Origin: an uncultured Armatimonadota bacterium
GTDB taxonomy: Bacteria; Armatimonadota; Fimbriimonadia; Fimbriimonadales; Fimbriimonadaceae
Assembly (NCBI GenBank): GCA_903899015.1
Contig: CAIUHP010000106.1
Location: 1-54,555, forward strand
DNA length: 54,555 nucleotides
Direction of reading: 5' to 3'
Position numbers and translations under genes: made by a program. Below, in pieces: positions 699 through 13,551 of the stretch (position 1 is the first letter of the stretch; every line of letters starts with the position of its first letter). Below the pieces are notes generated by a model. The model ran no database searches and was not told the DNA's origin. It was given only the letters and a program-made list of their open reading frames with translations.

Positions 699-1871
699 TT
701 ACAGCAGGATCACGGGAATTTGGCGGCCGATGGCGGTGTCTTGGTGGGCGGGAAAGTGGGCTAAGGCTTGGGCGGTGGCGATGCTACGTAGGCCGAAGGA
801 GGCTTGTTCTGTACTGAGAGTGAGTTGACTGTCTTCGATATTGACTCGGACGAAATCTTCTCTGCCGACGGCGTAATGCGGGAACGTGGAGGGGAGTCTT
901 AACCACTGGAGCTTCCAATCCGACCAACCGGCGAGCAGTCTCAAGGCGGGGCGGACAAAGATCTCGAAGCAAACGAAGGCGCTTGCCGGATTGCCCGGGA
1001 GTCCAAAAACGAAGCTATTGTCGATTTTTCCGAAGAGAATTGGTTTGCCAGGCCGGATACCGACTCCGTGGAAATACGTCTTCCCTAGCCTAGCCATTGC
1101 GGGGGCAAGAAAGTCACGATCTCCAACCGATGCTCCGCCAGCTACAAGAATAACTTCACTGGTCTGGGCTGCGGCCGTGAGACTTTGGACAAGTTCTTCT
1201 TCACTGTCTTTCACCCGAGAACAGATCACATTTGAATGGGTTGCCGAAAAGACTTGGCGAGAGAGCATTACCGAATTTGTGTCACGAATCTGGCTTCCGA
1301 TCGGTTGTTCTGACGGCTCAACCAGTTCATCACCGGTCGTGATGACAGAAACGGTTGGAGCGCACCAGACCTTCACCGAAGTGTGGCCTGCAAAAGCACA
1401 AATTGCTGCGCTCCCGGGATGGAATACCGACCCACTCGGAAACAAGATAGCGCCCTTGGTGAAATCGGCCCCTTGTCGGCGAATATGAGCGGACGGTCGG
1501 ATCGATTCTTTGATGAGAACCAGAGATCCTTCGACCTCCACATCTTCTTGCATGATAATTCCGTAGGTGCCTTCGGGTACTGGTGCACCAGTTAAGATTC
1601 GAAGTGCGGTTCCTTGCTGGATACTTTTCTGTTCTATCCCACCCGCAGCGATAGAGCCTGCGAGGATTAGGCGAACATCTTCCATCCCATCTTCGCTTGA
1701 ACCTATCGCATAACCGTCGACCGCACTGTTGTCAAACCGAGGATTGGGTTCGGAAGCAATGACCGATTCGGCAACGGCTAGTCCGTCTGCATCTTCAAGA
1801 GCAACAACTTGAGACTTGGTCGTCGGTTGAATTCGCTTCGCGATCTCCAAAATCGCCTGTTCGTAGGTCAT
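699..1871 (-). CDS. moeA: molybdopterin molybdenumtransferase MoeA
   Basis: This is MoeA, which inserts molybdate into adenylylated molybdopterin in the cytoplasm, the last step of molybdenum cofactor synthesis. The protein is 390 aa, the usual family length. Visible family motifs are TGDELVEP in the MoaB/MogA-like domain, GGASVGDRDF starting near residue 245 and GLPGNPASAF near residue 290. The ATG at 1871 is chosen because homology begins at MTYEQAI; the frame stays open upstream to 2051, but that would run into the divergent kinase gene. No other moa or mob gene is in the window, so it stands alone, 49 bp from the divergent gene. Confidence 0.9.
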   Translation of the reverse strand: MTYEQAILEIAKRIQPTTKSQVVALEDADGLAVAESVIASEPNPRFDNSAVDGYAIGSSEDGMEDVRLILAGSIAAGGIEQKSIQQGTALRILTGAPVPEGTYGIIMQEDVEVEGSLVLIKESIRPSAHIRRQGADFTKGAILFPSGSVFHPGSAAICAFAGHTSVKVWCAPTVSVITTGDELVEPSEQPIGSQIRDTNSVMLSRQVFSATHSNVICSRVKDSEEELVQSLTAAAQTSEVILVAGGASVGDRDFLAPAMARLGKTYFHGVGIRPGKPILFGKIDNSFVFGLPGNPASAFVCFEIFVRPALRLLAGWSDWKLQWLRLPSTFPHYAVGREDFVRVNIEDSQLTLSTEQASFGLRSIATAQALAHFPAHQDTAIGRQIPVILL

Positions 1872-1920
1872 CGGGTATTCGGACACACTAGAAGTATGGG
1901 CGGTTCGAGCACAATGAGTC

Positions 1921-3762
1921 ATGCGTAGCTTGCGGAGCCAACTCATCTTGAGCCATTTGTTTCTAGTGCTCTTGATGGTGTTCGTCATGAGCGGCGCAAG
2001 CGTGACGTTCTTCACGATCACCCAATCCGTTAATCGAGTCCTGCAGGGCAATTTCAGAACGGTGCTTGCCGCGCAGGAGATGAACGCCTCGCTTCAGGAG
2101 CAAGAGACTGCTTTTGCTTTGCTTGCCAACGGCGACTTACCAGAAGCTAGAGCAACTTACGAACGCGCTACGAAGGTTTTTGAGTCCGCATTTAAGACCG
2201 CACGCCAAACCGCAACCACTCAGGACCAGCGGGCCTCGGTTGAAGAAATCTCGAGGGTCTATCTTGTCACCAAGTTGCAAGCGACTCAGGTGTTGCCTGC
2301 CCTTGGAATGACGTCTACTATGAGTAGCCTGGAGATGTTTAAGAACAGGCTCCGACCCGAATTACAGCGAATGAGGGACTTGAGCCAAAAACTACTCGCA
2401 GCCAGTCGACTCGCGATTATTCAAGATAACGAACTTGCTCGCCAAAGCGCCCAGACCGCGTTTTGGAAGAGCGTCGGTATCACGTTTGCTTCCATGGCTT
2501 TTGCCGGACTCATTGCGACAATGATGATTCGGCGTATTTTAACCCCACTGGCTGCCCTGGCGAGACATGCCGAGCGCATTGCAGAAGGCGACCTTTCCCA
2601 ACATGGCTTGAAGCCTCGAAGCGACGAAATTGGCGCACTGGCAGATAGCTTCAACGAGATGGCTGCGAAACTTGCGGAAGTTAGAAAGAGCGAAGTCCGG
2701 AAGATGCGTAGGCTCGAAAAGATCTCGGAAGCAGCCATCTCAAGCCTTTACGACCCTCTCATCGTAACTGATGCTCAACGGAGAATCATCAAACTCAACA
2801 AGGCCGCGGAAGTGCTCTTTGGCCCGGTTCCCGAGTCACCTCGGAAGCCGGTCCACGAACATATCTCTGACCGCCGTATCTTAAGGGCAATCGACAATGC
2901 GATTAGCGATCAAAAGGTTTCGGCGGGAGAAGACGACAGTTCGCATGTGCAGATCAAAGTCGGCGACGATCATAAGACCTATCGTCTGCGTGTAACCCCT
3001 ATGCGCGGTGAAGATGGCAACCTTGTGGGCAGTGTGACAGTATTGGAAGATATCACCTATCTCAAGGTCCTCGATCAAATGAAGAGTGAATTCATTGGTG
3101 TAGCTTCTCACGAGCTTCGAACGCCGGTGACTTCACTAATTCTTTCGGCCCAACTATTAAGAGAGGGTGCAGCAGGACCCCTTAATCCGTCTCAGACTCA
3201 GGTGGTTGAGGCACAACAACAGGACTTGGATCGGCTCGAGAAGCTGATGCGAGACCTGCTTGACGTGACGAAGCTTGAGGCAGGAATGAGTCCACCGAGG
3301 CTGGAATCCGTTTCAGCGGAAGAATTGGTTGCGTATCCGGTCAAGAATCTAAAACCTCAAGCGGAAAAGAAGGGGGTTCGACTCACAGTTGGATCACTTC
3401 CAGAAGGAAACATTTTGAAGGCAGACAAAGTCCAAATCGGTCGTGTTCTGACAAACCTAATCGCTAACGCGATCCGCCACACTCCCGAAGGTGGAGAGGT
3501 TCGAGTTCGTGCAGAGCTAGGCGAGAATGTTGTAACCTTTGCGGTCGAAGACACGGGTGAAGGTATTCCTGAGAAATATCGGGAGCGTGTTTTTGAACGG
3601 TTTGTACAGGTACCAGGCGCAACCCAGGGTGGGGCTGGCTTGGGTCTCTCGATTGCAAACGGCATCGTAAAGGCTCACAGTGGAGAAATCAAAGTTGAGA
3701 GCGAAATTGGCAAAGGAAGCATATTCAGCTTCACATTGCCGCTTTCGGCGTTGCTAAGTTAA
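1921..3762 (+). CDS. membrane sensor histidine kinase (HAMP-PAS-HisKA-HATPase)
   Basis: A 613-aa membrane histidine kinase. The order is an N-terminal membrane helix (about 10-35), an extracytoplasmic helical region of about 150 residues, a second helix (about 180-203), a HAMP domain ending with the EIGALADSFNEM segment, a PAS domain, HisKA with phospho-acceptor His397 in SHELRTP, and an HATPase_c domain with N box (NLIANAIRH), G1 (DTGEGIP) and G2 (GAGLGLSIA). It lies 14 bp upstream of a response regulator and is almost surely its partner. This domain order resembles the kinase half of KdpD-type and NtrY-type sensors. The signal sensed is unknown, but the downstream genes point to potassium or osmotic state (inference). 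No good ribosome-binding site precedes the ATG. Confidence 0.9.
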   Translation: MRSLRSQLILSHLFLVLLMVFVMSGASVTFFTITQSVNRVLQGNFRTVLAAQEMNASLQEQETAFALLANGDLPEARATYERATKVFESAFKTARQTATTQDQRASVEEISRVYLVTKLQATQVLPALGMTSTMSSLEMFKNRLRPELQRMRDLSQKLLAASRLAIIQDNELARQSAQTAFWKSVGITFASMAFAGLIATMMIRRILTPLAALARHAERIAEGDLSQHGLKPRSDEIGALADSFNEMAAKLAEVRKSEVRKMRRLEKISEAAISSLYDPLIVTDAQRRIIKLNKAAEVLFGPVPESPRKPVHEHISDRRILRAIDNAISDQKVSAGEDDSSHVQIKVGDDHKTYRLRVTPMRGEDGNLVGSVTVLEDITYLKVLDQMKSEFIGVASHELRTPVTSLILSAQLLREGAAGPLNPSQTQVVEAQQQDLDRLEKLMRDLLDVTKLEAGMSPPRLESVSAEELVAYPVKNLKPQAEKKGVRLTVGSLPEGNILKADKVQIGRVLTNLIANAIRHTPEGGEVRVRAELGENVVTFAVEDTGEGIPEKYRERVFERFVQVPGATQGGAGLGLSIANGIVKAHSGEIKVESEIGKGSIFSFTLPLSALLS

Positions 3763-3776
3763 GAGGGAATCATAGT

Positions 3777-4550
3777 TTGAGTGCACGAGTTTTATTAATT
3801 GACGACGAAGCAAACGTTCGGACCATGATCAAATTGGTTCTTGAACATGCGGGATACGAAGTAGATGTCGCTCCCGATGGTCCGCAAGGAATTGCTAAGT
3901 TCGGTGACGGCAAGGATTGGGACTTGGTTCTGCTCGATCAGCGAATGCCTGGAATGGCCGGAATCGATGTCCAACGTGAGCTGCTGAAGCGACGCAGCGA
4001 CATGAGGCTGATCCTGATAACCGCTTTTGGGACAATTGATTTGGCCCTTGAAGCCATTCAAGCTGGCGCATCTGACTTCTTACGCAAGCCGTTTACTGCA
4101 GAAACCCTTCGAAGCACGGTCAATACCGTTCTGGAACGGCCGATTCAACGTATGTCGGCGGTTCCAGTTGGGATGGTTTGTCGGGAGTTCACACGAACAA
4201 CGATCAACGGCTTCAGCTTTGAATTGGATCATCCGACCGTCGATGATTCAACCGGCGATATGACCTGCATTTTTGATGTCAATCATGCAGACCAGCCAGC
4301 CAAGAAAGTCCGAGTGGAACTCCCTGCCTACGTGATGGAATTAGTGCGTGCTTACGTCGACGCGGATGAAGTTCCCGGTGGCGAACGGTTCTGGCAAGCA
4401 ATGTGTGAGGAGGCATTAGCCAACTATCTATGGCAAAATGCAGAGGTTCCTGCCGATAAAGTGGTTCGAATAGATGATCTTTCGAGTACCCTAACCCGCT
4501 GGTTAGATTCTGTTCTCACTGTGAGCTTTGGCGAAGATAATGGCCGATAA
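3777..4550 (+). CDS. response regulator with unrecognised C-terminal domain
   Basis: A 257-aa response regulator. Residues 1-120 are a receiver domain: acidic pair D9-D10, phospho-acceptor D54 in VLLDQRMPG, a switch Thr in LITAFG and the Lys in LRKPF. The remaining ~130 residues show no obvious HTH, AAA+, GGDEF or HD-GYP signature, so the output is unknown; it may act by protein contact. The start is a TTG at 3777 preceded by AGAGGGA; no better in-frame start exists. It follows the kinase by 14 bp, and its stop overlaps the start of the KdpD-like gene, so the three are probably co-translated. Aromatic and acidic residues are frequent in the tail. Confidence 0.85.
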   Translation: MSARVLLIDDEANVRTMIKLVLEHAGYEVDVAPDGPQGIAKFGDGKDWDLVLLDQRMPGMAGIDVQRELLKRRSDMRLILITAFGTIDLALEAIQAGASDFLRKPFTAETLRSTVNTVLERPIQRMSAVPVGMVCREFTRTTINGFSFELDHPTVDDSTGDMTCIFDVNHADQPAKKVRVELPAYVMELVRAYVDADEVPGGERFWQAMCEEALANYLWQNAEVPADKVVRIDDLSSTLTRWLDSVLTVSFGEDNGR

Positions 4551-5637
4551 TCAAAAACGCACCATCCATTTGGATGGCAAACATAAGATCTTTTTGGGTT
4601 ACGCTCCTGGTGTGGGCAAAACCCACGCAATGCTTGAAGAAGCTCTGAGAAGAGCCAAGCGTGGTCAAGACGTAGTGATTGGTCTGGTGGATTCCGAAGG
4701 GCGTGCTCCCATCGAAGAACTCGCCTCGACCTTGGAGGTCATTCCACCACTCGTTCTTAACGGTTCAAAAGAGGTTGATGTCGATGCCATCATTGCTCGC
4801 AAGCCGGAAGTCGTTCTCATCGACGACATTCAGCACACCAATGCGGCAGGCTCTGCGAGAGAAAAGCGATGGCAAGATGTCCAAGCGCTTCTCGATTCCG
4901 GAATTGGGGTTCTTTCAACCGTAAACGTTCACCACTTCGAGAGTCTGAACGATAACGTTTCTGACATTACCGGCCTCCAGATTTCTGATACTGTTCCCGA
5001 CCAAATCCTTCACGAAGCATGTGAAGTCGAATATATCGATGTCACTCCAAGAGCTCTGATCAATCGACTCGACCGTGGCGATGTTTATAGTGCAAATCAG
5101 CTAACTCCCGATGTCGCGAGCTTCTTTAGGGAAGGGAATTTGAACGCGTTGCGAGAAATTGCGATGCGCGAAACCGCCAGCCGCGTGGATGAGGATCTCG
5201 TCGAGTACCGCAAGGAAAAGCGGATCGAAAAGCCTTGGGCGGCTCAGGACCGAGTCATGATTTGCATCAGTCCAACGCGAAGCGCACTTCGCCTCATTCG
5301 CAGGGGATGGCGCATGGGTCAACGCATGCATGGTGAAGTGTTATGCGTTCACGTTGAAGAGGGTCCGATCGGCGACAAGGAAAAGAAGATTCTCGCTGAC
5401 GACTTTAAATTGGCCGAGCGGCTTGGAATTCAAACGTTCACACTGAAAGGAGAACTCGCTCCTACCCTTATTGAATTCGCAAAAGAGCGAAATGTCACGC
5501 AATTGATCATCGGTCACCCGCGACGCAATCGATTTCAGGAGATCCTCAAGCCTGCGGTTCTTGCCGAATTGGTTAAATCGCTTCGAACGGTTGACATTTT
5601 GGTTGTCGCGACTGAGAGCCCGACGGCAGAACACTAA
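4540..5637 (+). CDS. stand-alone KdpD sensor domain with universal stress protein domain
   Basis: A 365-aa protein matching only the N-terminal cytoplasmic half of the potassium sensor KdpD. The KdpD domain has a Walker A motif GYAPGVGKT at residues 20-28, a modified Walker B, VLIDDIQHTN, where canonical KdpD has DELAHTN, and the segment STVNVHHFESLND. A universal stress protein (USP) domain follows from about residue 235. The membrane, dimerisation and ATPase domains of full KdpD are absent; the kinase gene two positions upstream may supply them. In some Firmicutes the KdpD USP domain binds c-di-AMP; whether this one does cannot be told. The ATG at 4540 overlaps the response-regulator stop. 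A TTG at 4528 is a less likely start. Confidence 0.85.
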   Translation: MADNQKRTIHLDGKHKIFLGYAPGVGKTHAMLEEALRRAKRGQDVVIGLVDSEGRAPIEELASTLEVIPPLVLNGSKEVDVDAIIARKPEVVLIDDIQHTNAAGSAREKRWQDVQALLDSGIGVLSTVNVHHFESLNDNVSDITGLQISDTVPDQILHEACEVEYIDVTPRALINRLDRGDVYSANQLTPDVASFFREGNLNALREIAMRETASRVDEDLVEYRKEKRIEKPWAAQDRVMICISPTRSALRLIRRGWRMGQRMHGEVLCVHVEEGPIGDKEKKILADDFKLAERLGIQTFTLKGELAPTLIEFAKERNVTQLIIGHPRRNRFQEILKPAVLAELVKSLRTVDILVVATESPTAEH

Positions 5638-5655
5638 AATTCTTTCAGAGTTGTT

Positions 5656-5685
5656 TTGGCCGCAGCGTCGCGAGCCTGCTATTAT
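5656..5685 (+). promoter_or_regulatory. possible promoter for the KimA-like gene
   Basis: TTGGCC (5656-5661) and TATTAT (5680-5685) are separated by 18 bp in the 72-bp gap before the transporter. The fit to sigma-70 boxes is moderate and untested. It would allow transporter expression separate from the regulators. Confidence 0.3.
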
Positions 5686-5709
5686 CATTTGTTGCGCTGC
5701 TGACAATCC

Positions 5710-7581
5710 ATGCAAGACACGCCTAAGCCAAGCTTAACGCACCGAGTGCGGAGAGCCCTTCTAGGGGCTCCTATTCCTACATCCCAGGCTCACCATGAAC
5801 GGCTATCTCCGTTTTTGGGTTTGCCGGTATTTAGTTCGGACTCTTTAAGTTCGGTAGCCTACGCGACAGAAGCGATTCTCGCGGTTCTGATTCTGGGCAG
5901 TGCGGGGTATCTCACCCACCAAATCTGGATTTCGATTGCGATCGTTCTACTGATCGTTATCATCGCGTTCTCGTATCAACAAACGATTCATGCCTATCCA
6001 TCCGGCGGTGGTTCCTATATCGTTGCCTCGGAGAATCTGGGGGAAACGGCAGGCCTGTTTGCGGCCGCCGCACTGCTAATCGACTATGTTCTGACGGTTT
6101 CGGTTTCGGTGGCAGCGGGAGTCTTGGCCATTACGGCGCTCTACCCGCGTCTGCTCCAAGACCTTGTTCCGTTGTCTCTCATGTTCATTGCCCTGGTTGC
6201 GTTTGCAAACCTCAGGGGTGTTCGAGAGTCAGGAGCAATTTTTGCATTGCCTACCTACGGATTTGTCGTGTCGATCCTCATCATGATCGGCTTTGGCATC
6301 TTTCGAGCCCTCACAACTCATACCCCTCCTCAAGTGCTCGATCCAACGCCGTGGGCTGGAAAGGATAGCCATCATGCTTTTCTTTTCATCCTTTTACGGT
6401 CCTTTGCCGCTGGTTGCACCGCACTGACAGGCATTGAAGCGGTCAGTAACGGGGTCCAAGCATTTAAGGCACCAGAGGCCGTTAATGCGTCCAAAGTGCT
6501 TCGTTGGATGGCTTTCCTACTCAGCGTGCTCTTTTTGGGGATTAGCTGGCTAGCGATGAAGATTCCTCACCTAGCGTTACTTCCCAACGACGATAAGAAT
6601 TACACCACGGTTTGCTACCAAGTCGCGGTTTACGCTTTTGGAAGTCCGAATTCCTGGTTCGTCTTCATTGTTCAGTTATTCACAGCTCTGATCCTTATTC
6701 TCGCCGCTAACACCGCATTTGCAGATTTTCCTCGACTAGCCAGCCTTATCGCTCGAGATGGATACCTTCCCCGCTACCTTGCTCGGCAAGGTGACAAACT
6801 CGTGTTCCATAACGGCATTCTCGTATTGGCGGCGGCGGCCGGAGGACTTGTTGTTATCTTCAAAGGTCAGTTAGACCTGCTTCTTCCCTTGTATGCGATT
6901 GGAGTCTTTACCGCTTTCACGCTTTCTCAAATCGGAATGGTCGTTCACTGGCTAAAGGTAAGGGGCACCGGCTGGCAACGCAGTATCGCAATCAACGCAG
7001 TCGGATCTGTACTTTGCGCTAGCGTGCTTCTCATAATCGCCTACACCAAATTTGCGGAAGGAGCATGGGTCGTTTTACTCCTGCTGCCCATTTTCTACAG
7101 CCTATTCAAATGGATTAAACGACGATACGCATCGATGGGCGAGCAGTTGGCGCACACGGTTCAATCGGTCCCGGGAGTCGAGGGGCACATGGTTCTGTTG
7201 CTGGTTCCTCGAGTACATCGAGGAATCGTCTCCGCACTCCAGTACGCTAAAATGCTTCAGGGCGAATGCCAAGCCGTTCACATCACGATTAACGAAAAGG
7301 GCTTACCAGAGTTGCAACGAAATTGGGCACAAGTTAGTGAAGACGTTCCTTTGGTCGTTTTGCCCTCGCCATACCGTTCATTGATCACACCCATGCTTGA
7401 ATACGTGGATCTTCTTCGATTGGAGCATCCAGGAGTGCTCATCACGGTCGTCGTCGCCGAAGCAGTATCGACCAAGTGGTATCAACGGTTGCTCACTGAA
7501 AATGTCGCTCAACAATTGAAGAGCGCACTTGCGAGCCGGCGAAACGTCGTAGTAGCAAATGTCCGATATTTTTTAAACTAG
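5710..7581 (+). CDS. KimA-like APC-superfamily potassium transporter
   Basis: A 623-aa APC-superfamily permease closely resembling Bacillus KimA (YdaO), a proton-coupled high-affinity potassium importer. Hallmarks are the N-terminal SSDSLSSVAYATEAIL segment, AYPSGGGSYIVASENLGE in the transport core, and about a dozen hydrophobic helices to residue ~470, followed by a ~150-residue soluble C-terminal domain, as in KimA. It lies 72 bp after the KdpD/USP protein. That supports potassium over amino acids as substrate, although APC substrates are hard to assign from sequence. KimA is inhibited by c-di-AMP in Firmicutes; the same control is possible here but not shown. Confidence 0.8.
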   Translation: MQDTPKPSLTHRVRRALLGAPIPTSQAHHERLSPFLGLPVFSSDSLSSVAYATEAILAVLILGSAGYLTHQIWISIAIVLLIVIIAFSYQQTIHAYPSGGGSYIVASENLGETAGLFAAAALLIDYVLTVSVSVAAGVLAITALYPRLLQDLVPLSLMFIALVAFANLRGVRESGAIFALPTYGFVVSILIMIGFGIFRALTTHTPPQVLDPTPWAGKDSHHAFLFILLRSFAAGCTALTGIEAVSNGVQAFKAPEAVNASKVLRWMAFLLSVLFLGISWLAMKIPHLALLPNDDKNYTTVCYQVAVYAFGSPNSWFVFIVQLFTALILILAANTAFADFPRLASLIARDGYLPRYLARQGDKLVFHNGILVLAAAAGGLVVIFKGQLDLLLPLYAIGVFTAFTLSQIGMVVHWLKVRGTGWQRSIAINAVGSVLCASVLLIIAYTKFAEGAWVVLLLLPIFYSLFKWIKRRYASMGEQLAHTVQSVPGVEGHMVLLLVPRVHRGIVSALQYAKMLQGECQAVHITINEKGLPELQRNWAQVSEDVPLVVLPSPYRSLITPMLEYVDLLRLEHPGVLITVVVAEAVSTKWYQRLLTENVAQQLKSALASRRNVVVANVRYFLN

Positions 7582-7929
7582 GTGAATATGAGTCTTATTT
7601 CAGATCGGCCCTCTGGAATTATCCTGGAGGAAAGCGAGCTAGGAGGTTTTGGCGGCTTTCCAGACAAGCTTTATCTCATTTCCGTTGGAGGCGACAAATA
7701 TGCGTGTAACAACGCGACTGCTCCCGATGGCCAGAAGCTAGATGGATTGGCGACGTTTCCTAATCCCGACGAAGCGACCACCTACATGGGAATGTTAGCG
7801 GGCCTTTCGGGTGAAATCGTCATGAAGTCCTTTGAAGAGGCCAGAGAGATCGCCAAGAGTAAGCCGAGGCTTTCGTGCCTGTTTCTCTTTGTGGCAGGCC
7901 ACATCGTCGAAATTCACTTTGTGCGGTAA
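7582..7929 (+). CDS. small hypothetical protein downstream of the KimA-like gene
   Basis: A 113-115-aa cytoplasmic-looking protein with no family I recognise. It begins directly at the transporter stop codon. Either the GTG at 7582 or the ATG at 7588 may be the start, the latter preceded by AGGTGA, so it is probably translated by coupling. The sequence is mixed alpha/beta with a Gly-rich N-terminus (GGFGGFPDK) and a hydrophobic C-terminal strand pair (LSCLFLFVAGHIVEIHFV). It may be an accessory factor of the transporter. That is inferred from position only. Confidence 0.6.
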   Translation: MNMSLISDRPSGIILEESELGGFGGFPDKLYLISVGGDKYACNNATAPDGQKLDGLATFPNPDEATTYMGMLAGLSGEIVMKSFEEAREIAKSKPRLSCLFLFVAGHIVEIHFVR

Positions 7930-7944
7930 GTTTGGCAGGCAATC

Positions 7945-8112
7945 TCATTCTTCTCGGACGAGTGGAATGATGCTCAGGGTGAATCCTGGAACGCCTAACC
8001 AAGCCAGCCCCCGGCAGATTAGAACCACCGAAAACAGCATCACGAACAAGCCCATGATCTGACGGACTCTGGGTCGGTGAGCTTGCTTTCTGCCAACATC
8101 TGAAATGGCCAT
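7945..8112 (-). CDS. candidate 55-aa single-pass membrane protein
   Basis: A short open frame fills the gap between two plus-strand genes on the opposite strand. It starts with ATG at 8112 and ends with TGA at 7945. The basic N-terminus (residues 1-18, rich in Arg and Lys) is followed by a hydrophobic stretch at about 19-50 (IMGLFVMLFSVVLICRG and on) and a short charged tail. This positive-inside, single-helix layout is typical of real small membrane proteins and uncommon by chance. No clear ribosome-binding site is seen, so confidence is moderate. Confidence 0.45.
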   Translation of the reverse strand: MAISDVGRKQAHRPRVRQIMGLFVMLFSVVLICRGLAWLGVPGFTLSIIPLVREE

Positions 8113-8344
8113 AGAGCTATCTTGCGATCAAGCCTTTTTTTAAAGAAGTCATGGTTTTTTGTGGCCACGATTTTTGGCTACTGGATTTACGCGACATTCG
8201 CAGGCTTATTTATTTGCGGATGAGCTCAGGGAACCTAAAACACGCTGTTTAATATCGAAATGAGACCGAAATTTGCGCAAAACTTTGACGCAAGCCCAGT
8301 TGAGGCCATTAAGATCGCTAATCAAAAAGGCATAATATAGACAC

Positions 8345-8674
8345 GTGCGCGAAATTGCCCTGTACAGTGAAGCCGGAGCTCTTGCAGCCTATGAAATCGA
8401 GGTCTCGACCGCGATCCAAGGTATGCTTGCTGTCCGCCTTTGCGGTCCAGATGGCCGCGTTTTGGCCGAGGGCCCTGTTCCCCGCCACCTTCTAACTGAT
8501 CTGCTCGTTCGCAGACAGCCCCATGTTTACATGGGTGAAGCTTCCATTCGAAATTCGGATATCACTGACGACTTAGTCGTTCACGTCGATGTTAAGAATG
8601 GTAAGAGAGAATTCTGGATTCGCAGAGTTGACCTAGCTGGCGCGCTCGTCCGTGTCGGCGAATTCGATAACTAA
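8345..8674 (+). CDS. hypothetical protein, about 109 aa
   Basis: A 109-aa soluble protein that I do not recognise. It is rich in beta-strand-like segments and charged residues, with no signal peptide or Cys/His metal motif. The start is a GTG at 8345. No Shine-Dalgarno sequence lies upstream; an AT-rich TAATAT at 8333-8338 sits only 6 nt before the start, compatible with a leaderless message. It is a single gene, convergent with feoB. Confidence 0.6.
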   Translation: MREIALYSEAGALAAYEIEVSTAIQGMLAVRLCGPDGRVLAEGPVPRHLLTDLLVRRQPHVYMGEASIRNSDITDDLVVHVDVKNGKREFWIRRVDLAGALVRVGEFDN

Positions 8675-8730
8675 TCGCCTAAGAGCGACCACGACAGTTC
8701 CTAACTACGTTGGGCTTAACTCTTGTTCCG

Positions 8731-10968
8731 CTATGAGCCAAACAAGTGTCCGATCTGTTGGACAAGCACCGCACCCAGATAGGCCAGCGTCGTCATGTAG
8801 GTAAACATGAATAGCGGCCACTTCCATGAGTTTGTTTCACGCTTTACGGTGGCGAGCGTGGCCATACACTGAGCACACAAGGCGAAGAAGACCATCAGGC
8901 CAATTGCGGTCCAAGGAGTGAATAATGGCTTGCCGTTGGGCCATGTAGCCTCGTTCAGCGCTTTAGGTAAATCTGATGAGTGTTCGTCCACATCGCCCCC
9001 CAAAGAGAAGATGATGCCGAGGGACGGCACGACTGTTTCTCGGGCTGGAAACGCCGACAGGATGCTTGTCGTGATTCTCCAGTCAAATCCGGCTGGAATG
9101 AACGCTGGTTCAATCGCCTTACCAAACCGACCAAGGACCGAGTTGGCTAGTTGAGCCTGATCCATCTGCTTCTTGAGGTCCTGCTTTGTAGCTTCGGGAT
9201 GGCTCACCTTGTACGTGCTCGATACCGCTGTACGATCTTCTTGACTGAGTCGTGGGAAGTAAGACAGTCCCCAGATCAGGATCGACATGAAAACAATGAT
9301 CGTTCCCGCTGTTTGGACAAAGATCTTGCCCCGGAAATACATCGCGATCCAGACGTCACGCCACTTTGGCCACTGATAGGGTGGCAGTTCCAGCAAGAAC
9401 GGCAAGCGCTTGCCCTTAATCACCTTGCGGTTTAAAAACCAAACTAAGGGAACGGCAACAAAGAGTCCGACCAAGTGCATTGCGAACAAGGCAAACCCAG
9501 CCCATAGCGCTCCGTATTTGGGTTGGATGAAAGCACCGATGAGCAGCAGATAGACCGGCAGTCGCGCACTACAAGACATTAACGGAGCGATCAGGATCGT
9601 CGCAAGCCGGCTATTGCGGTCTGGCATCACGCGGGCAGCCATGATTCCCGGGATCGCGCAGGCAAAACTGGAGAGCAATGGAATAAAAGCTCGTCCGTTG
9701 AGACCACACCATCCAAAAAGTCGATCCATTAGGAATGCGGCGCGAGCTAGATATCCCGTTCCCTCGAGCACGGCGATAAACAGGAACAGAATCAGAATTT
9801 GAGGCAAGAAAACGAGCATGCCTCCCACTCCACTTAAAATGCCGTCGACGATCAGCGACTGGATGACCGGCACACCTGCTAGATGGGGGCTGATTTCACC
9901 CTTCAGCCAGTCAAAGCAGAATGTTATTCCGTTCATGATGGGCTGAGCAAAGGTGTAGATGGATTGGAACACCAAGTACATCAGAACCACAAAGATTCCG
10001 AGTCCAAAAACACGGTGGGTCAGAACCAGATCAATCTTGTCGGTTAGGGTGCGCTCGCTCTTGGGGGTTTTGACCTGACGGACAACTGCGCGCTTGACGA
10101 CGCTCGCCCATTGATATCGGCTTTGGACCTCGATCGCGGGCTTAAGGAGGCCTTCTTCGCCTAATTGTTGCCGCGCATCACTAAATGCGTCCTTCATCTC
10201 CGGAAAATCGTCTAGGAAGCGATTAAACGGATCATCGGGATTAAAGAGAGCGTGACGAATATCGGCCTTCGTAAAGTCAATACCGACGCGCGCAACTCGT
10301 TCTCGAAGTGAAGCCATTCGAGTCTCAAGCGCATCGGGAAAGCCAATTTCAAATGTCGGCTTCCGAGGACTTTCAAGATTTCGCTCAATCGCGTCCTTCA
10401 GCTCCTGGAGTCCCTTATCTTTGTGCCCTACCATGGGCACGATTTCGACGCCGAGCAAATTCGACATCTTGGGCAAGTCGATCTCATTTCCGCTCTGCTC
10501 CAAACGATCCACCATCGTCATCGCGGCGACAATCGAGTGACCCGCTTCCGCAAGCTGGCTGAAGAAGTAGAGATTGCGTTCGAGGTTAGTAGCATCCAAG
10601 ACGCAGACAAGGAGGTCCGGTCTTCGCGTATCGGGAAGGGTGCCTTCGATAACACCTACGGCTACCATTTCATCTTCTGAGACGGCCGATATAGAGTACT
10701 GCCCCGGAACGTCGATGCACTCGACCGTCATGAGGTCGAGTTTCAGGAACCCGGAGACCTTCTCCACCGTTACGCCCGCGTAGTTGCCGACTTTTTGATG
10801 AGAGCCGGTCAGGCTGTTGAAAAGGGTGGTCTTTCCGGCGTTAGGGTTGCCAACGAGAGCAATGAGATATCGTCCGTCGGTTCGTTCGGACAATTCTCCA
10901 GAACTATTCGACGGGTTCGACTTCAAAGCCCTTAGTCTCGTTCTTTCGCAGGCACAGACGATAGCCAC
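8731..10968 (-). CDS. feoB: ferrous iron transport protein B
   Basis: FeoB is the inner-membrane Fe(II) importer with a cytoplasmic G domain. The protein is up to 745 aa. Visible G-protein motifs are G1 GNPNAGKTT, G3 DVPGQYS (usually DLPG) and a G4-like TMVDR. The membrane part has the paired Gate motifs, for instance FACAIPGIMAARVM and SAFPARET. The start is uncertain: GTG at 10968 gives a 65-bp overlap with feoA, whereas TTG at 10893 lies 10 bp after the feoA stop and still keeps the G domain whole. It forms an operon with feoA, probably under the palindrome upstream of feoA. Confidence 0.93.
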   Translation of the reverse strand: MAIVCACERTRLRALKSNPSNSSGELSERTDGRYLIALVGNPNAGKTTLFNSLTGSHQKVGNYAGVTVEKVSGFLKLDLMTVECIDVPGQYSISAVSEDEMVAVGVIEGTLPDTRRPDLLVCVLDATNLERNLYFFSQLAEAGHSIVAAMTMVDRLEQSGNEIDLPKMSNLLGVEIVPMVGHKDKGLQELKDAIERNLESPRKPTFEIGFPDALETRMASLRERVARVGIDFTKADIRHALFNPDDPFNRFLDDFPEMKDAFSDARQQLGEEGLLKPAIEVQSRYQWASVVKRAVVRQVKTPKSERTLTDKIDLVLTHRVFGLGIFVVLMYLVFQSIYTFAQPIMNGITFCFDWLKGEISPHLAGVPVIQSLIVDGILSGVGGMLVFLPQILILFLFIAVLEGTGYLARAAFLMDRLFGWCGLNGRAFIPLLSSFACAIPGIMAARVMPDRNSRLATILIAPLMSCSARLPVYLLLIGAFIQPKYGALWAGFALFAMHLVGLFVAVPLVWFLNRKVIKGKRLPFLLELPPYQWPKWRDVWIAMYFRGKIFVQTAGTIIVFMSILIWGLSYFPRLSQEDRTAVSSTYKVSHPEATKQDLKKQMDQAQLANSVLGRFGKAIEPAFIPAGFDWRITTSILSAFPARETVVPSLGIIFSLGGDVDEHSSDLPKALNEATWPNGKPLFTPWTAIGLMVFFALCAQCMATLATVKRETNSWKWPLFMFTYMTTLAYLGAVLVQQIGHLFGS

Positions 10969-11131
10969 GAAGATCGATCTCTACTGGATCGCCAAATGGA
11001 GCAACCTTGATGACTCGGAAGGTTGTTCCAACGGTTAATCCCATCTCTTGGAGTCGATCCATTTCACTTGAAGTAGATCCAACGCTAGTGATGCGTGCAT
11101 GCATACCCTTTTGAAGTTTTGAAAAACTCAT
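10904..11131 (-). CDS. feoA: ferrous iron transport protein A
   Basis: FeoA is a small SH3-like cytoplasmic partner needed for FeoB activity. The 75-aa form starts at ATG 11131, which has GGAG eight bases upstream; an in-frame ATG at 11155 would add eight residues but has a poorer site. The family pattern is clear: RLQEMGLTVGT (the LxxLGhxxG-type motif) followed by DPVEIDLRGYRLCLRKNE. It is the first gene of feoAB. Confidence 0.88.
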   Translation of the reverse strand: MSFSKLQKGMHARITSVGSTSSEMDRLQEMGLTVGTTFRVIKVAPFGDPVEIDLRGYRLCLRKNETKGFEVEPVE

Positions 11132-11181
11132 TTCGAGCGCTCCGACTGCGGACATGTGTTTAATCTACCCAAAAACGTATA

Positions 11182-11197
11182 TTTTGACTCGTCAAAA
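11182..11197. promoter_or_regulatory. perfect 7-2-7 palindrome upstream of feoA, candidate iron-regulator operator
   Basis: TTTTGACTCGTCAAAA has two perfect 7-bp arms around a 2-bp centre. It lies 50 bp upstream of the feoA ATG, and its minus strand contains a TTGACG box. Size and position fit a metal-dependent repressor operator (DtxR/MntR or Fur type), but the sequence is not a textbook box of either, and the regulator is not in this window. Confidence 0.55.
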
Positions 11198-11379
11198 ATC
11201 ATGTTTGCACTCGATATTTAATGATGTTCGATTTAGGTTCAAATCACGCCAGATATCCAAAGATAATTGTGGAGATTTGACTGATTTATAATCCGAAAGT
11301 TGCGTGCTTTTGACAGAAAATCCAAAGATTTGGCGGATTTTGGCCAGGACATCGTTTCTCGAATCCAAAGAGCGAGGAC

Positions 11380-13551
11380 ATGCTTCCAACCGCCAGCCGA
11401 CACTTTTTTCCTGAGTTCTCTCTTGCAGCTCTGATCGAATTGACTCGCAAATCCGTCGCTTGTAGTGTGATCCCTTTTCTTGCTCTTGCGATCCTTAGCC
11501 AGACTCAATCCTCCGTTAGCATTGTCGCAAGGGGAATTACAGTGGCTTCGCTCTTGAAACAAGTAACGACCCAAACGGGTGTGCCGATGGAAGCGATGCC
11601 ACAGACGAAAAGCGAAATCGTGATCGTCTCGGTCAAGAACGTGAAGGTCGCCGATTTTCAGGACAATCTGGCGCGCGCTATCGGAGGTCGCTGGAAGAAA
11701 GAAGGCAACGTGATTCGACTTGGAAGATCGCTCGATCTAGAACGAGCCCAGCAGCTAGCAGAACGCAAACTACGAATAGAAGAAGTCAAAGTGGGGCTCG
11801 CCAATCTGCGTAAGAAGGTTGCTGCCCAACCACCATTTGATGCCAAAGTCGCCCACAGCTTAGCTTCCCAGGTGAGCGCGCTCTATGCCAAGTACAAAGG
11901 CCATCTCAGTGATTCTCCTGGTTTAGAAGCATCCATGGCACTCGATTCGTTAAGTCCCGGAGGGAGACTTGCGATTGCTGCGATATCCGAGTTGACCACC
12001 GATCAGATCGCAGATGTGGAGCCTGGTGGACGCATTGTGTATTGCAGCGACCCAACCTCCATGCAACGCAAACTTCCCGACAAAGTGATGCCCCTGGTCG
12101 AGAGGTTTGTTTTAGAGCAACGGCTCTATTCTGAGGAACTCAAACGATTGCCAATTGCCGACCAGATCAAACACACGTGGACATCGTTGCTTAACTCGGA
12201 TGAGGCTGAAATGCCGGCAACGGTTCTTATTTCGACGGAACGGTCACCTTACAATCCTAGCTTGACGGTGAGATGCGACCTGGTCAATAAGGATGGATCG
12301 ATCGCCCAGCAACTTCAGTCCCTCATTGATTTACCTTCCGCGCCGATGTCGGTTCCTGACATAGCCCCAGGAGAAACCTCCCTATCGGAGCCATCAGCAC
12401 GGCTGATGCTCAATATGAAGTCACTTCAAAGCGGGAAGACATTCTTGGATGACAAGGTTACGATCAATGAACTCTCCCATATGGAATCTCATGATCCCCT
12501 TTCCTACTTAGTGGCAGACGGTATCTTTGGCTTAGGCCCCGAAAAGAATATTCTCGCGTGCGTCCCCGATGACGTGTTCCAGTCGAGCCTTTTTGAAGTC
12601 GAGACGCCTAAAGGAAATATCGACAATCAAAGATTTTGGAAATTGCTCAATCGAGAGTGCTTGGTCGATGCATCTAACGGGTGGTTGATCGCTTCCCCTC
12701 GGAGAATGGTAACCACCCGTAACCAACGAATGGATCGACTCCTAGCAAGTCAGTTTCTTAGGAACTCACGAGATAACGACGGCGCAACTCTTGAGGAGAT
12801 GGCTGCTTTTGCCATCCAAATGCCTAAGAACTATATGGAGACACTCGTACCGTTCATCGCCTTCTTTGTCTATCCCGAGCTCAACTCGGGAATTAACGAT
12901 CGAAATGTTGAGTTGCTCCGAGTCTATGGTCGACTTACGCCGACTCAAAGGATTGAGCTTTCCACCCACGGGTCAATGTCAGTAGGGGCGTTGACTCAGG
13001 CGTCTCTGGATGATCTCAACTATCTTGTTTACCGTGCCGACGCCCCGATCCAAGTCGTGATCAGTTCGTCTCGTAACGGAGCTCCTGCTCCCGACTCACT
13101 GGTGAGGTCCATCAACTCGGAAATCACAGTTGCCCTGCCAAGCGGAGTTCCTCAGAAGGCAACTCTGACCATGAATTCTAGCAACAATGAGGCAGTGATC
13201 GTGGATGGTGGGGATTCAACTTCGGCTGGTTATCAGCCCCTCAACGCCTTTTCACTAGGCTATATGCTCGCGCGAGCGGAAGTTGCGGATCCAAGCGATA
13301 AACGCGAACGTGTCCGAATCGATAAATACCGTTATGGTAAGACACGTCAAATCACCCTAGAACTCCGGCTTTCGGAATCCGTATCCGTCGGCGAAACGTT
13401 CCACGAGAGCAAATTCTCACGCAAAGGTCAATCTGTGTCCTACGATCAGCTTCCAGACAGTTTTAAAAAGCAGGTGGACGAAGCAAAGATTCAAGCTCGC
13501 AAGAGTTTGGCCAGAGAAGGCAACAAAGTAAAGGTTCCACCTCCGTTCTAG
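11380..13551 (+). CDS. large exported protein of unknown function with STN-like N-terminal region
   Basis: A 723-aa protein. A hydrophobic segment at about 26-45 suggests a signal peptide or anchor, which would be unusually far from the ATG; a later start is possible but none is obvious. Residues ~50-105 (ITVASLLKQVTTQTGVPMEA and following) resemble a secretin/TonB short N-terminal (STN) domain. Such domains bring in partners at the cell envelope. The rest has no family I recognise. It ends in a Lys-rich tail (KVKVPPPF). It is a single gene, divergent from feoA. A 224-bp gap (11156-11379) upstream holds three short copies of ATCCAAAGA. Confidence 0.7.
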   Translation: MLPTASRHFFPEFSLAALIELTRKSVACSVIPFLALAILSQTQSSVSIVARGITVASLLKQVTTQTGVPMEAMPQTKSEIVIVSVKNVKVADFQDNLARAIGGRWKKEGNVIRLGRSLDLERAQQLAERKLRIEEVKVGLANLRKKVAAQPPFDAKVAHSLASQVSALYAKYKGHLSDSPGLEASMALDSLSPGGRLAIAAISELTTDQIADVEPGGRIVYCSDPTSMQRKLPDKVMPLVERFVLEQRLYSEELKRLPIADQIKHTWTSLLNSDEAEMPATVLISTERSPYNPSLTVRCDLVNKDGSIAQQLQSLIDLPSAPMSVPDIAPGETSLSEPSARLMLNMKSLQSGKTFLDDKVTINELSHMESHDPLSYLVADGIFGLGPEKNILACVPDDVFQSSLFEVETPKGNIDNQRFWKLLNRECLVDASNGWLIASPRRMVTTRNQRMDRLLASQFLRNSRDNDGATLEEMAAFAIQMPKNYMETLVPFIAFFVYPELNSGINDRNVELLRVYGRLTPTQRIELSTHGSMSVGALTQASLDDLNYLVYRADAPIQVVISSSRNGAPAPDSLVRSINSEITVALPSGVPQKATLTMNSSNNEAVIVDGGDSTSAGYQPLNAFSLGYMLARAEVADPSDKRERVRIDKYRYGKTRQITLELRLSESVSVGETFHESKFSRKGQSVSYDQLPDSFKKQVDEAKIQARKSLAREGNKVKVPPPF

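What the first reader, a model, noticed from the sequence alone, without database searches (positions are those of the whole stretch)
1921..7929. Potassium-control cassette: kinase, regulator, stand-alone KdpD sensor/USP and KimA-like carrier
KdpD is normally one protein, with the KdpD and USP domains fused to the kinase. Here the kinase is a separate HAMP-PAS protein, and the KdpD-N/USP part is its own 365-aa gene beside a KimA-like carrier instead of kdpFABC. The Walker B reads DDIQHTN, not DELAHTN. This could be a split sensor system tuned to KimA, perhaps using c-di-AMP, with a novel small protein (7582-7929) as last member. Sequence shows the domains; the joint function is inferred.
Basis: partly seen in the sequence, partly recalled or inferred. 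Interest (0 to 1): 0.75.

Follow-up and report, generated by a model that had tools for sequence, protein, structure and literature searches.

The report
Bacterial potassium-uptake control gene cassette
This is a conserved set of genes with which bacteria of the phylum Armatimonadota probably control potassium uptake, built around a free-standing piece of the known potassium sensor KdpD that elsewhere in the phylum serves the Kdp pump and here sits beside another potassium importer, KimA.

Summary
In detail: a HAMP-PAS histidine kinase (HK), response regulator (RR), stand-alone KdpD-N/USP protein (short KdpD) and KimA homologue form one gene run. The order is conserved: of 46 RR loci inspected across Armatimonadota, 43 have the short KdpD beside the RR and 34 of these also the HK. 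The trio adjoins kdpABC in 13 genomes, KimA in 12 (both in two) and an Na+/H+ exchanger in 2. The window KimA keeps all tested K+-site residues of B. subtilis KimA. Split or short KdpD is already known, so the split is not new. New here: coupling to KimA; an RR with an acidic C-terminal domain of no known family; and loss of the catalytic glutamate of the KdpD serine kinase, which is kept in all 13 kdpABC-linked copies but replaced in 18 of 28 others (Asp in the window). This KimA has also lost the c-di-AMP contacts of its B. subtilis relative. The small last protein is not an obligate member. The genome also has full-length KdpDE and a separate kdpABC-KimA2 operon. Mechanism is inferred, not shown.

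The parts
1921..3762 (+). Sensor histidine kinase (HK), HAMP-PAS-HisKA-HATPase; no KdpD-like GAF part found
   Evidence: Pfam; orthologues in the cluster in 34 of 43 inspected RR-short KdpD loci
3777..4550 (+). Response regulator: receiver domain plus a ~130-aa acidic C-terminal domain of unknown family
   Evidence: Pfam PF00072 only; no Pfam family for the C-terminal part; pI 4.2-5.1 in 14 homologues; AlphaFold2 pLDDT 80.8; domain found in 53 of 291 Armatimonadota genomes
4540..5637 (+). Stand-alone KdpD N-terminal domain plus USP domain (short KdpD); Walker A GKT, Walker B DD instead of DE
   Evidence: PF02702 263.5 bits, Usp; 2r8r and 7ji4; residue table
5656..5685 (+). Promoter-like match upstream of kimA (TTGGCC-18-TATTAT, extended -10); weak, chance matches expected
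   Evidence: consensus scan, 10 found against 5.2 expected in 1700-8400
5710..7581 (+). KimA homologue, predicted K+/H+ symporter with cytosolic domain
   Evidence: phmmer 425 bits to 6s3k over residues 10-621; K+-site residues conserved
7582..7929 (+). Small protein of unknown function (likely start ATG 7588, 113 aa); neighbour rather than obligate member
   Evidence: relatives in 19 of 20 genus members but mostly elsewhere in the genome; AlphaFold2 pLDDT 40.7, uninformative

Best explanation
The genes form a potassium-uptake control module that is widespread in Armatimonadota: histidine kinase, response regulator without a recognisable DNA-binding domain, and a stand-alone KdpD-N/USP protein. 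In most inspected genomes outside the family the module is the tail of a kdpABC operon; in Fimbriimonas it is coupled to the K+ carrier KimA. Proposed working, inferred: the HK senses a membrane or cytoplasmic signal and phosphorylates the RR (pairing supported by a natural HK-RR fusion). The RR acts by protein contact, most likely on the short KdpD encoded in the overlapping gene. The short KdpD reports potassium status through its USP domain (c-di-AMP is the leading candidate ligand) and acts on the transporter after translation. Where KdpB is the partner, the short KdpD is predicted to phosphorylate it, as E. coli and Deinococcus KdpD do. Where KimA is the partner or no transporter is linked, that kinase chemistry is no longer under constraint, so control is more likely through binding than through phosphorylation. 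Shown: gene order, residue states, distribution. Inferred: partners, ligand, direction of control.
For: Short KdpD next to RR in 43 of 46 inspected loci, HK in the cluster in 34 of these. kdp genes attached in 13; KimA attached in 12, in several different gene orders, plus HK-RR-KimA without KdpD in two genomes; operons with both kdpABC and KimA in G061 and G068. HK and RR fused in G012. KimA residues D36, Y43, D117, T121, S125, T230, E233, Y377 all conserved, which PMC6994465 ties to K+ binding, gating and proton coupling. Catalytic Glu (E. coli E110) kept in all 13 kdpABC-linked copies, replaced in 18 of 28 others, at least 4 changes on the tree. The clade of 8 genomes without the HK and without the window-type KimA also has GKA/DN in place of GKT/DE. 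RR C-terminal part is acidic and of no known family. Diadenylate cyclase in all 37 genomes checked.
Against: No direct evidence of any interaction, ligand or phosphotransfer. All losses of the catalytic Glu lie within one family, so the association with kdpABC linkage (Fisher p about 9e-5) is inflated by shared ancestry. Six Fimbriimonas genomes keep Glu without kdpABC in the operon. Asp may still work as a base. The genome has kdpABC elsewhere, so KdpB could still be the partner in trans. The USP motif matches the S. aureus c-di-AMP motif only in part (CISPTRSAL). A DNA-binding role for the RR cannot be excluded from sequence.
Confidence: 0.55

Rival explanations
1. Ordinary two-component transcription control: the RR binds DNA or RNA polymerase through an unrecognised C-terminal domain and switches kimA (or kdpABC) transcription; the short KdpD only tunes the kinase/phosphatase balance.
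For: In Deinococcus, with a similarly split KdpD, the RR acts on the kdp promoter (PMC5716572). A 72-base gap with a promoter-like match lies before kimA. The modelled C-terminal domain begins with a four-stranded sheet followed by helices, in part like OmpR-type domains (comparison from memory).
Against: No Pfam DNA-binding family, even at E = 10, in any of 14 homologues, while KdpE of the same genome has Trans_reg_C. The domain is acidic, pI 4.2-5.1. No C-terminal wing hairpin in the model.
Confidence: 0.25
2. The short KdpD is a working c-di-AMP-stimulated serine kinase that phosphorylates KimA (or KdpB in trans), with Asp replacing Glu as base.
For: KdpD-N alone is an atypical serine kinase, and short D. 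geothermalis KdpD is stimulated by c-di-AMP (PMC11018627). The window copy keeps GKT, the Walker B Asp and R190. Diadenylate cyclase present; KdpB with TGES present in the same genome.
Against: The catalytic Glu was essential in E. coli (E110A inactive, PMC11018627) and is Asp here; the adenine-pairing W39 is His; relatives in the same genus keep neither Walker A Thr nor Glu. No phosphosite in KimA is known to me.
Confidence: 0.2
3. The genes are co-located but not functionally joined; the trio serves the genome's distant kdpABC-KimA2 operon and KimA here is a chance neighbour.
For: The genome has kdpABC and a full-length KdpDE elsewhere; trio and KimA are separated in G008 and G017.
Against: KimA joins this trio in 12 inspected loci in several different orders, and twice joins HK-RR without KdpD. 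The full-length KdpDE of this genome is already a candidate regulator for kdpABC.
Confidence: 0.1

Closest known systems
Deinococcus radiodurans split Kdp system (kdpBAC-kdpD-N with separate sensor kinase and RR; PMC5716572)
   Same: Separate HAMP-type kinase, RR and KdpD-N/USP; the kdpABC-linked relatives of the window cassette look alike in outline
   Different: Short KdpD belongs to a different clade; the RR there is a transcription factor that binds the kdp promoter; no KimA; Walker B keeps DE
Short KdpD/Usp atypical serine kinase of D. geothermalis (PMC11018627)
   Same: KdpD-N plus USP, no histidine kinase part; host makes c-di-AMP
   Different: Here next to KimA; catalytic Glu is Asp; the genome also has full-length KdpD, a case that the survey in that paper left out by design
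NCBIfam NF038185 KdpD-like non-kinase potassium sensor
   Same: Best NCBIfam match of the short KdpD, 334.8 bits over residues 12-358
   Different: Below the curated cut-off of 550 bits, so not an assigned member
Bacillus subtilis KimA (6s3k, 8b70)
   Same: Full-length similarity, all tested K+-site residues, R337
   Different: Cytosolic c-di-AMP contacts P479, H579, N580, Q581, S582 replaced; encoded with a two-component system, no c-di-AMP riboswitch in the window
KdpDE two-component system (E. coli)
   Same: KdpD-N/USP homology; potassium transporter linkage
   Different: KdpD split; HK has HAMP-PAS instead of the KdpD transmembrane/GAF part; RR lacks the OmpR-type DNA-binding domain

Membership tests
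KdpD N-terminal domain (PF02702) | Curated Pfam score over the domain | tested here: met
   263.5 bits against cut-off 26.1, residues 13-216
KdpD-like non-kinase potassium sensor (NF038185) | Curated NCBIfam cut-off 550 bits | tested here: not met
   334.8 bits
KdpD atypical serine kinase (PMC11018627) | Walker A G36 K37 T38 | tested here: met
   GKT in the window copy
KdpD atypical serine kinase (PMC11018627) | Walker B D109 and catalytic E110 | tested here: not met
   D kept, E replaced by D
KdpD atypical serine kinase (PMC11018627) | Adenine pair W39/R190 | tested here: inconclusive
   R kept, W39 is His; Y or F in most KdpDs tested
KdpD atypical serine kinase (PMC11018627) | Transfers phosphate to KdpB Ser162 | not testable with these tools
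   needs purified proteins
c-di-AMP-binding KdpD USP (PMC8214093) | Motif (A/G/C)xSxSxxN(Y/F) | tested here: not met
   CISPTRSAL: C and first S fit, second Ser is Thr, Asn is Ala. The motif was derived for Firmicutes, so this lowers but does not exclude binding
KimA potassium carrier | Residues D36, Y43, D117, T121, S125, T230, E233, Y377 | tested here: met
   all identical in the window protein
KimA potassium carrier | K+/H+ symport activity | not testable with these tools
   complementation needed
KimA potassium carrier | c-di-AMP pocket of B. subtilis KimA | tested here: not met
   R337 kept; P479L, H579T, N580E, Q581N, S582V; a regulatory trait, not a defining one for transport
KdpDE two-component system | RR with OmpR/KdpE-type DNA-binding domain | tested here: not met
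   no Trans_reg_C in RR or its homologues; present in the genome's own KdpE
KdpDE two-component system | Sensor kinase with KdpD transmembrane/GAF part | tested here: not met
   HK shows HAMP-PAS-HisKA-HATPase only

The most novel reading that the evidence does not exclude
A KdpD-derived protein that has turned from a serine kinase into a non-catalytic potassium or c-di-AMP reporter, switched by a response regulator that works by protein contact instead of DNA binding, and controlling KimA, a carrier that has lost its own c-di-AMP pocket: control outsourced from the transporter to a separate sensor.
Probability: 0.25. Interest if true: 0.75.

Novelty: new variant of a known kind. Interest (0 to 1): 0.55.

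Why it matters
How one KdpD domain came to control transporters both as a kinase and as a sensor is open. Armatimonadota hold a natural series in which the same module is tied to KdpABC, to both KdpABC and KimA, to KimA alone, to an Na+/H+ exchanger, or to nothing, with catalytic residues intact at one end and lost at the other. That makes it directly testable whether KdpD-N works as a kinase, a sensor or a scaffold, and whether a response regulator can control potassium uptake without binding DNA. The published survey of KdpD forms set aside short copies in genomes that also hold a full-length KdpD (PMC11018627), so this class was not examined there.

Tried and rejected
AlphaFold2 of the small protein: pLDDT 40.7, discarded. 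Pfam at E up to 10 on the RR C-terminal domain: three different single-member weak matches, taken as chance. c-di-AMP riboswitch as control of this kimA: none in the window; the two in the genome lie before other reading frames, with no potassium transporter recognised directly downstream. Amino-acid carrier reading of the permease: rejected because the protein matches KimA over its full length and keeps the K+ residues. Small protein as a fixed member: rejected. Literature: no paper found with KdpD and Armatimonadetes and, in two term searches, none on a KimA gene linked to a two-component cassette; only open-licence papers were searched.

Full report
What is there. The window lies in a 4.94-Mb genome (G000, contig C106) whose named relatives are Fimbriimonas and other Armatimonadota. 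Five open reading frames follow each other on the + strand from 1921 to 7929. Searches give their nature: a 613-aa HAMP-PAS histidine kinase, a 257-aa response regulator whose last 130 residues match no Pfam family, a 365-aa protein made of the KdpD N-terminal domain and a USP domain, a 623-aa KimA homologue, and a small protein. RR and short KdpD overlap by 11 bases, and HK and RR are 14 bases apart, which points to co-expression of those three. KimA follows after 72 bases with a weak promoter-like match, so it may have its own promoter.

The genome has more potassium genes. A full-length KdpD (C43) with a KdpE that has a normal DNA-binding domain lies elsewhere. kdpA-kdpB-kdpC followed directly by a second KimA (41% identical to the first) lies on C92. 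So the cassette is an addition to a standard Kdp system, not a replacement for it.

Conservation of the order. All 20 genomes of the genus that were searched have the RR-short KdpD pair. HK is adjacent in 12 of them, and in G012 HK and RR are one 869-aa protein. KimA follows in nine. Across the phylum, the RR C-terminal domain was found in 53 of 291 genomes, in 27 of 156 genera. A scan of 84,980 species gave only Armatimonadota or unnamed MAGs, but with a single peptide pattern, so absence elsewhere is not shown. In all, 46 RR loci were inspected: the 20 of the genus, five from the rest of the family and 21 from other families. The short KdpD is in the cluster in 43 (not in G088, G090 and G119); HK is also there in 34 of these, absent in eight and cut by a contig end in one.

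Linked transporters. Thirteen of these loci have kdp genes directly upstream (kdpA-kdpB-kdpC-HK-RR-short KdpD; two are cut by contig ends). Two have an Na+/H+ exchanger upstream. KimA is in the cluster in 12 loci, in different positions: after short KdpD, between kdpC and HK (G061), after an MpsC-like gene that follows short KdpD (G068), and between HK and RR (G076). In G088 and G090 HK-RR is followed by KimA with no KdpD. Joining of KimA to this HK-RR pair in several different orders is hard to explain by chance and is the strongest evidence for a shared function. In G008 (probably Fimbriimonas ginsengisoli Gsoil 348, judged from memory by its single 5.23-Mb contig) KimA has left the trio and sits at the end of the kdpDE-ABC run.

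The carrier. The window KimA aligns to B. subtilis KimA from residue 10 to 621 (425 bits). D36, Y43, D117, T121, S125, T230, E233 and Y377 are identical. PMC6994465 shows that D36, Y43 and E233 are essential and that T121, S125 and Y377 affect growth at low K+. Of the c-di-AMP contacts given in PMC10284832, R337 is kept but P479, H579, N580, Q581 and S582 are L, T, E, N and V. The second KimA of the genome keeps P, H, N and Q. The window KimA is therefore a likely K+ carrier that probably does not bind c-di-AMP in the known way.

The short KdpD. PMC11018627 shows that the KdpD N-terminal domain is an atypical serine kinase that phosphorylates KdpB Ser162. In E. coli it needs the Walker A residues, W39/R190, D109 and E110, with E110 as the base. 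The same paper shows that a short Deinococcus KdpD is stimulated by c-di-AMP, and that kinase and histidine-kinase parts are on separate chains in some phyla, most commonly Acidobacteriota and Chloroflexota. In the window protein E110 is Asp and W39 is His, with GKT, D109 and R190 intact. Across copies, E110 is kept in all 13 loci linked to kdpABC and replaced in 18 of 28 others, as D, N or P. Fisher's test gives p about 9e-5, but all replacements are within one family, so that figure overstates the strength of the association; the tree still needs at least four changes. Eight Fimbriimonas genomes form a clade with GKA and DN at these sites. The same eight lack an HK orthologue genome-wide, and seven of them have no KimA match at all, while G010 has only weak fragments. 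Since GKA and DN are constant across the eight, the protein still seems to be under constraint, in a form predicted to be non-catalytic. The short KdpDs of Armatimonadota form one clade apart from the Deinococcus and cyanobacterial short forms and from full-length KdpD.

The response regulator. The receiver has its phospho-acceptor Asp (D54, invariant). The C-terminal domain is acidic (pI 4.2-5.1), has no Pfam match, and is modelled as a four-stranded sheet with three helices and a short strand, without the C-terminal hairpin of an OmpR-type domain. Structure searches matched only the receiver, so whether its fold is new was not tested.

Working model and limits. HK to RR phosphotransfer is supported by the fusion. 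RR to short KdpD contact is inferred from the nearly constant gene pair and the overlapping genes. USP sensing of c-di-AMP is possible (cyclase in all 37 genomes checked) but the motif fits only in part. Control of KimA by the short KdpD is inferred from linkage. Direction of control is unknown.

Verdict. The split as such is known. The KimA coupling, the unusual RR and the graded loss of the kinase residues make it a new variant of the Kdp control system worth an experiment.

Noticed in passing
window 8345-8674 (+): A 109-aa protein without a Pfam match, conserved next to the cassette in three close relatives (G013, G005, G004).
   Followed up: partly
window 8731-11155 (-): A FeoB-like ferrous iron transporter and a small FeoA-like gene, judged by eye from the sequence, follow the cassette on the other strand.
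   Followed up: no
window 699-2051 (-): A MoeA-like gene (by eye) is divergent from the histidine kinase, leaving only about 50 bases between the likely starts.
   Followed up: no
L124 (G000:C92) 6273-12781 (-): kdpA-kdpB-kdpC is followed by a second KimA that keeps most c-di-AMP contacts of B. subtilis KimA but has F at Y377 and H at R337.
   Followed up: partly
L144 (G119:C53) 8114-11600: RR-HK-RR arrangement with two regulators of this kind and no short KdpD nearby.
   Followed up: no
L147 9778-10152 and L085 387-758: An MpsC-domain protein (PF10057) lies between short KdpD and KimA in one genome and upstream of kdpA in another; ORFs of similar size precede kdpA in several relatives.
   Followed up: partly
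G008:C1:3638152-3640010: A third KimA-like gene of G008 appears split in two open frames (113 and 567 aa).
   Followed up: no
G000:C81:45727-45863 and G000:C43:136930-137064: Two c-di-AMP riboswitches; the first reading frames downstream are a sulfotransferase-like one and one with no Pfam match.
   Followed up: partly
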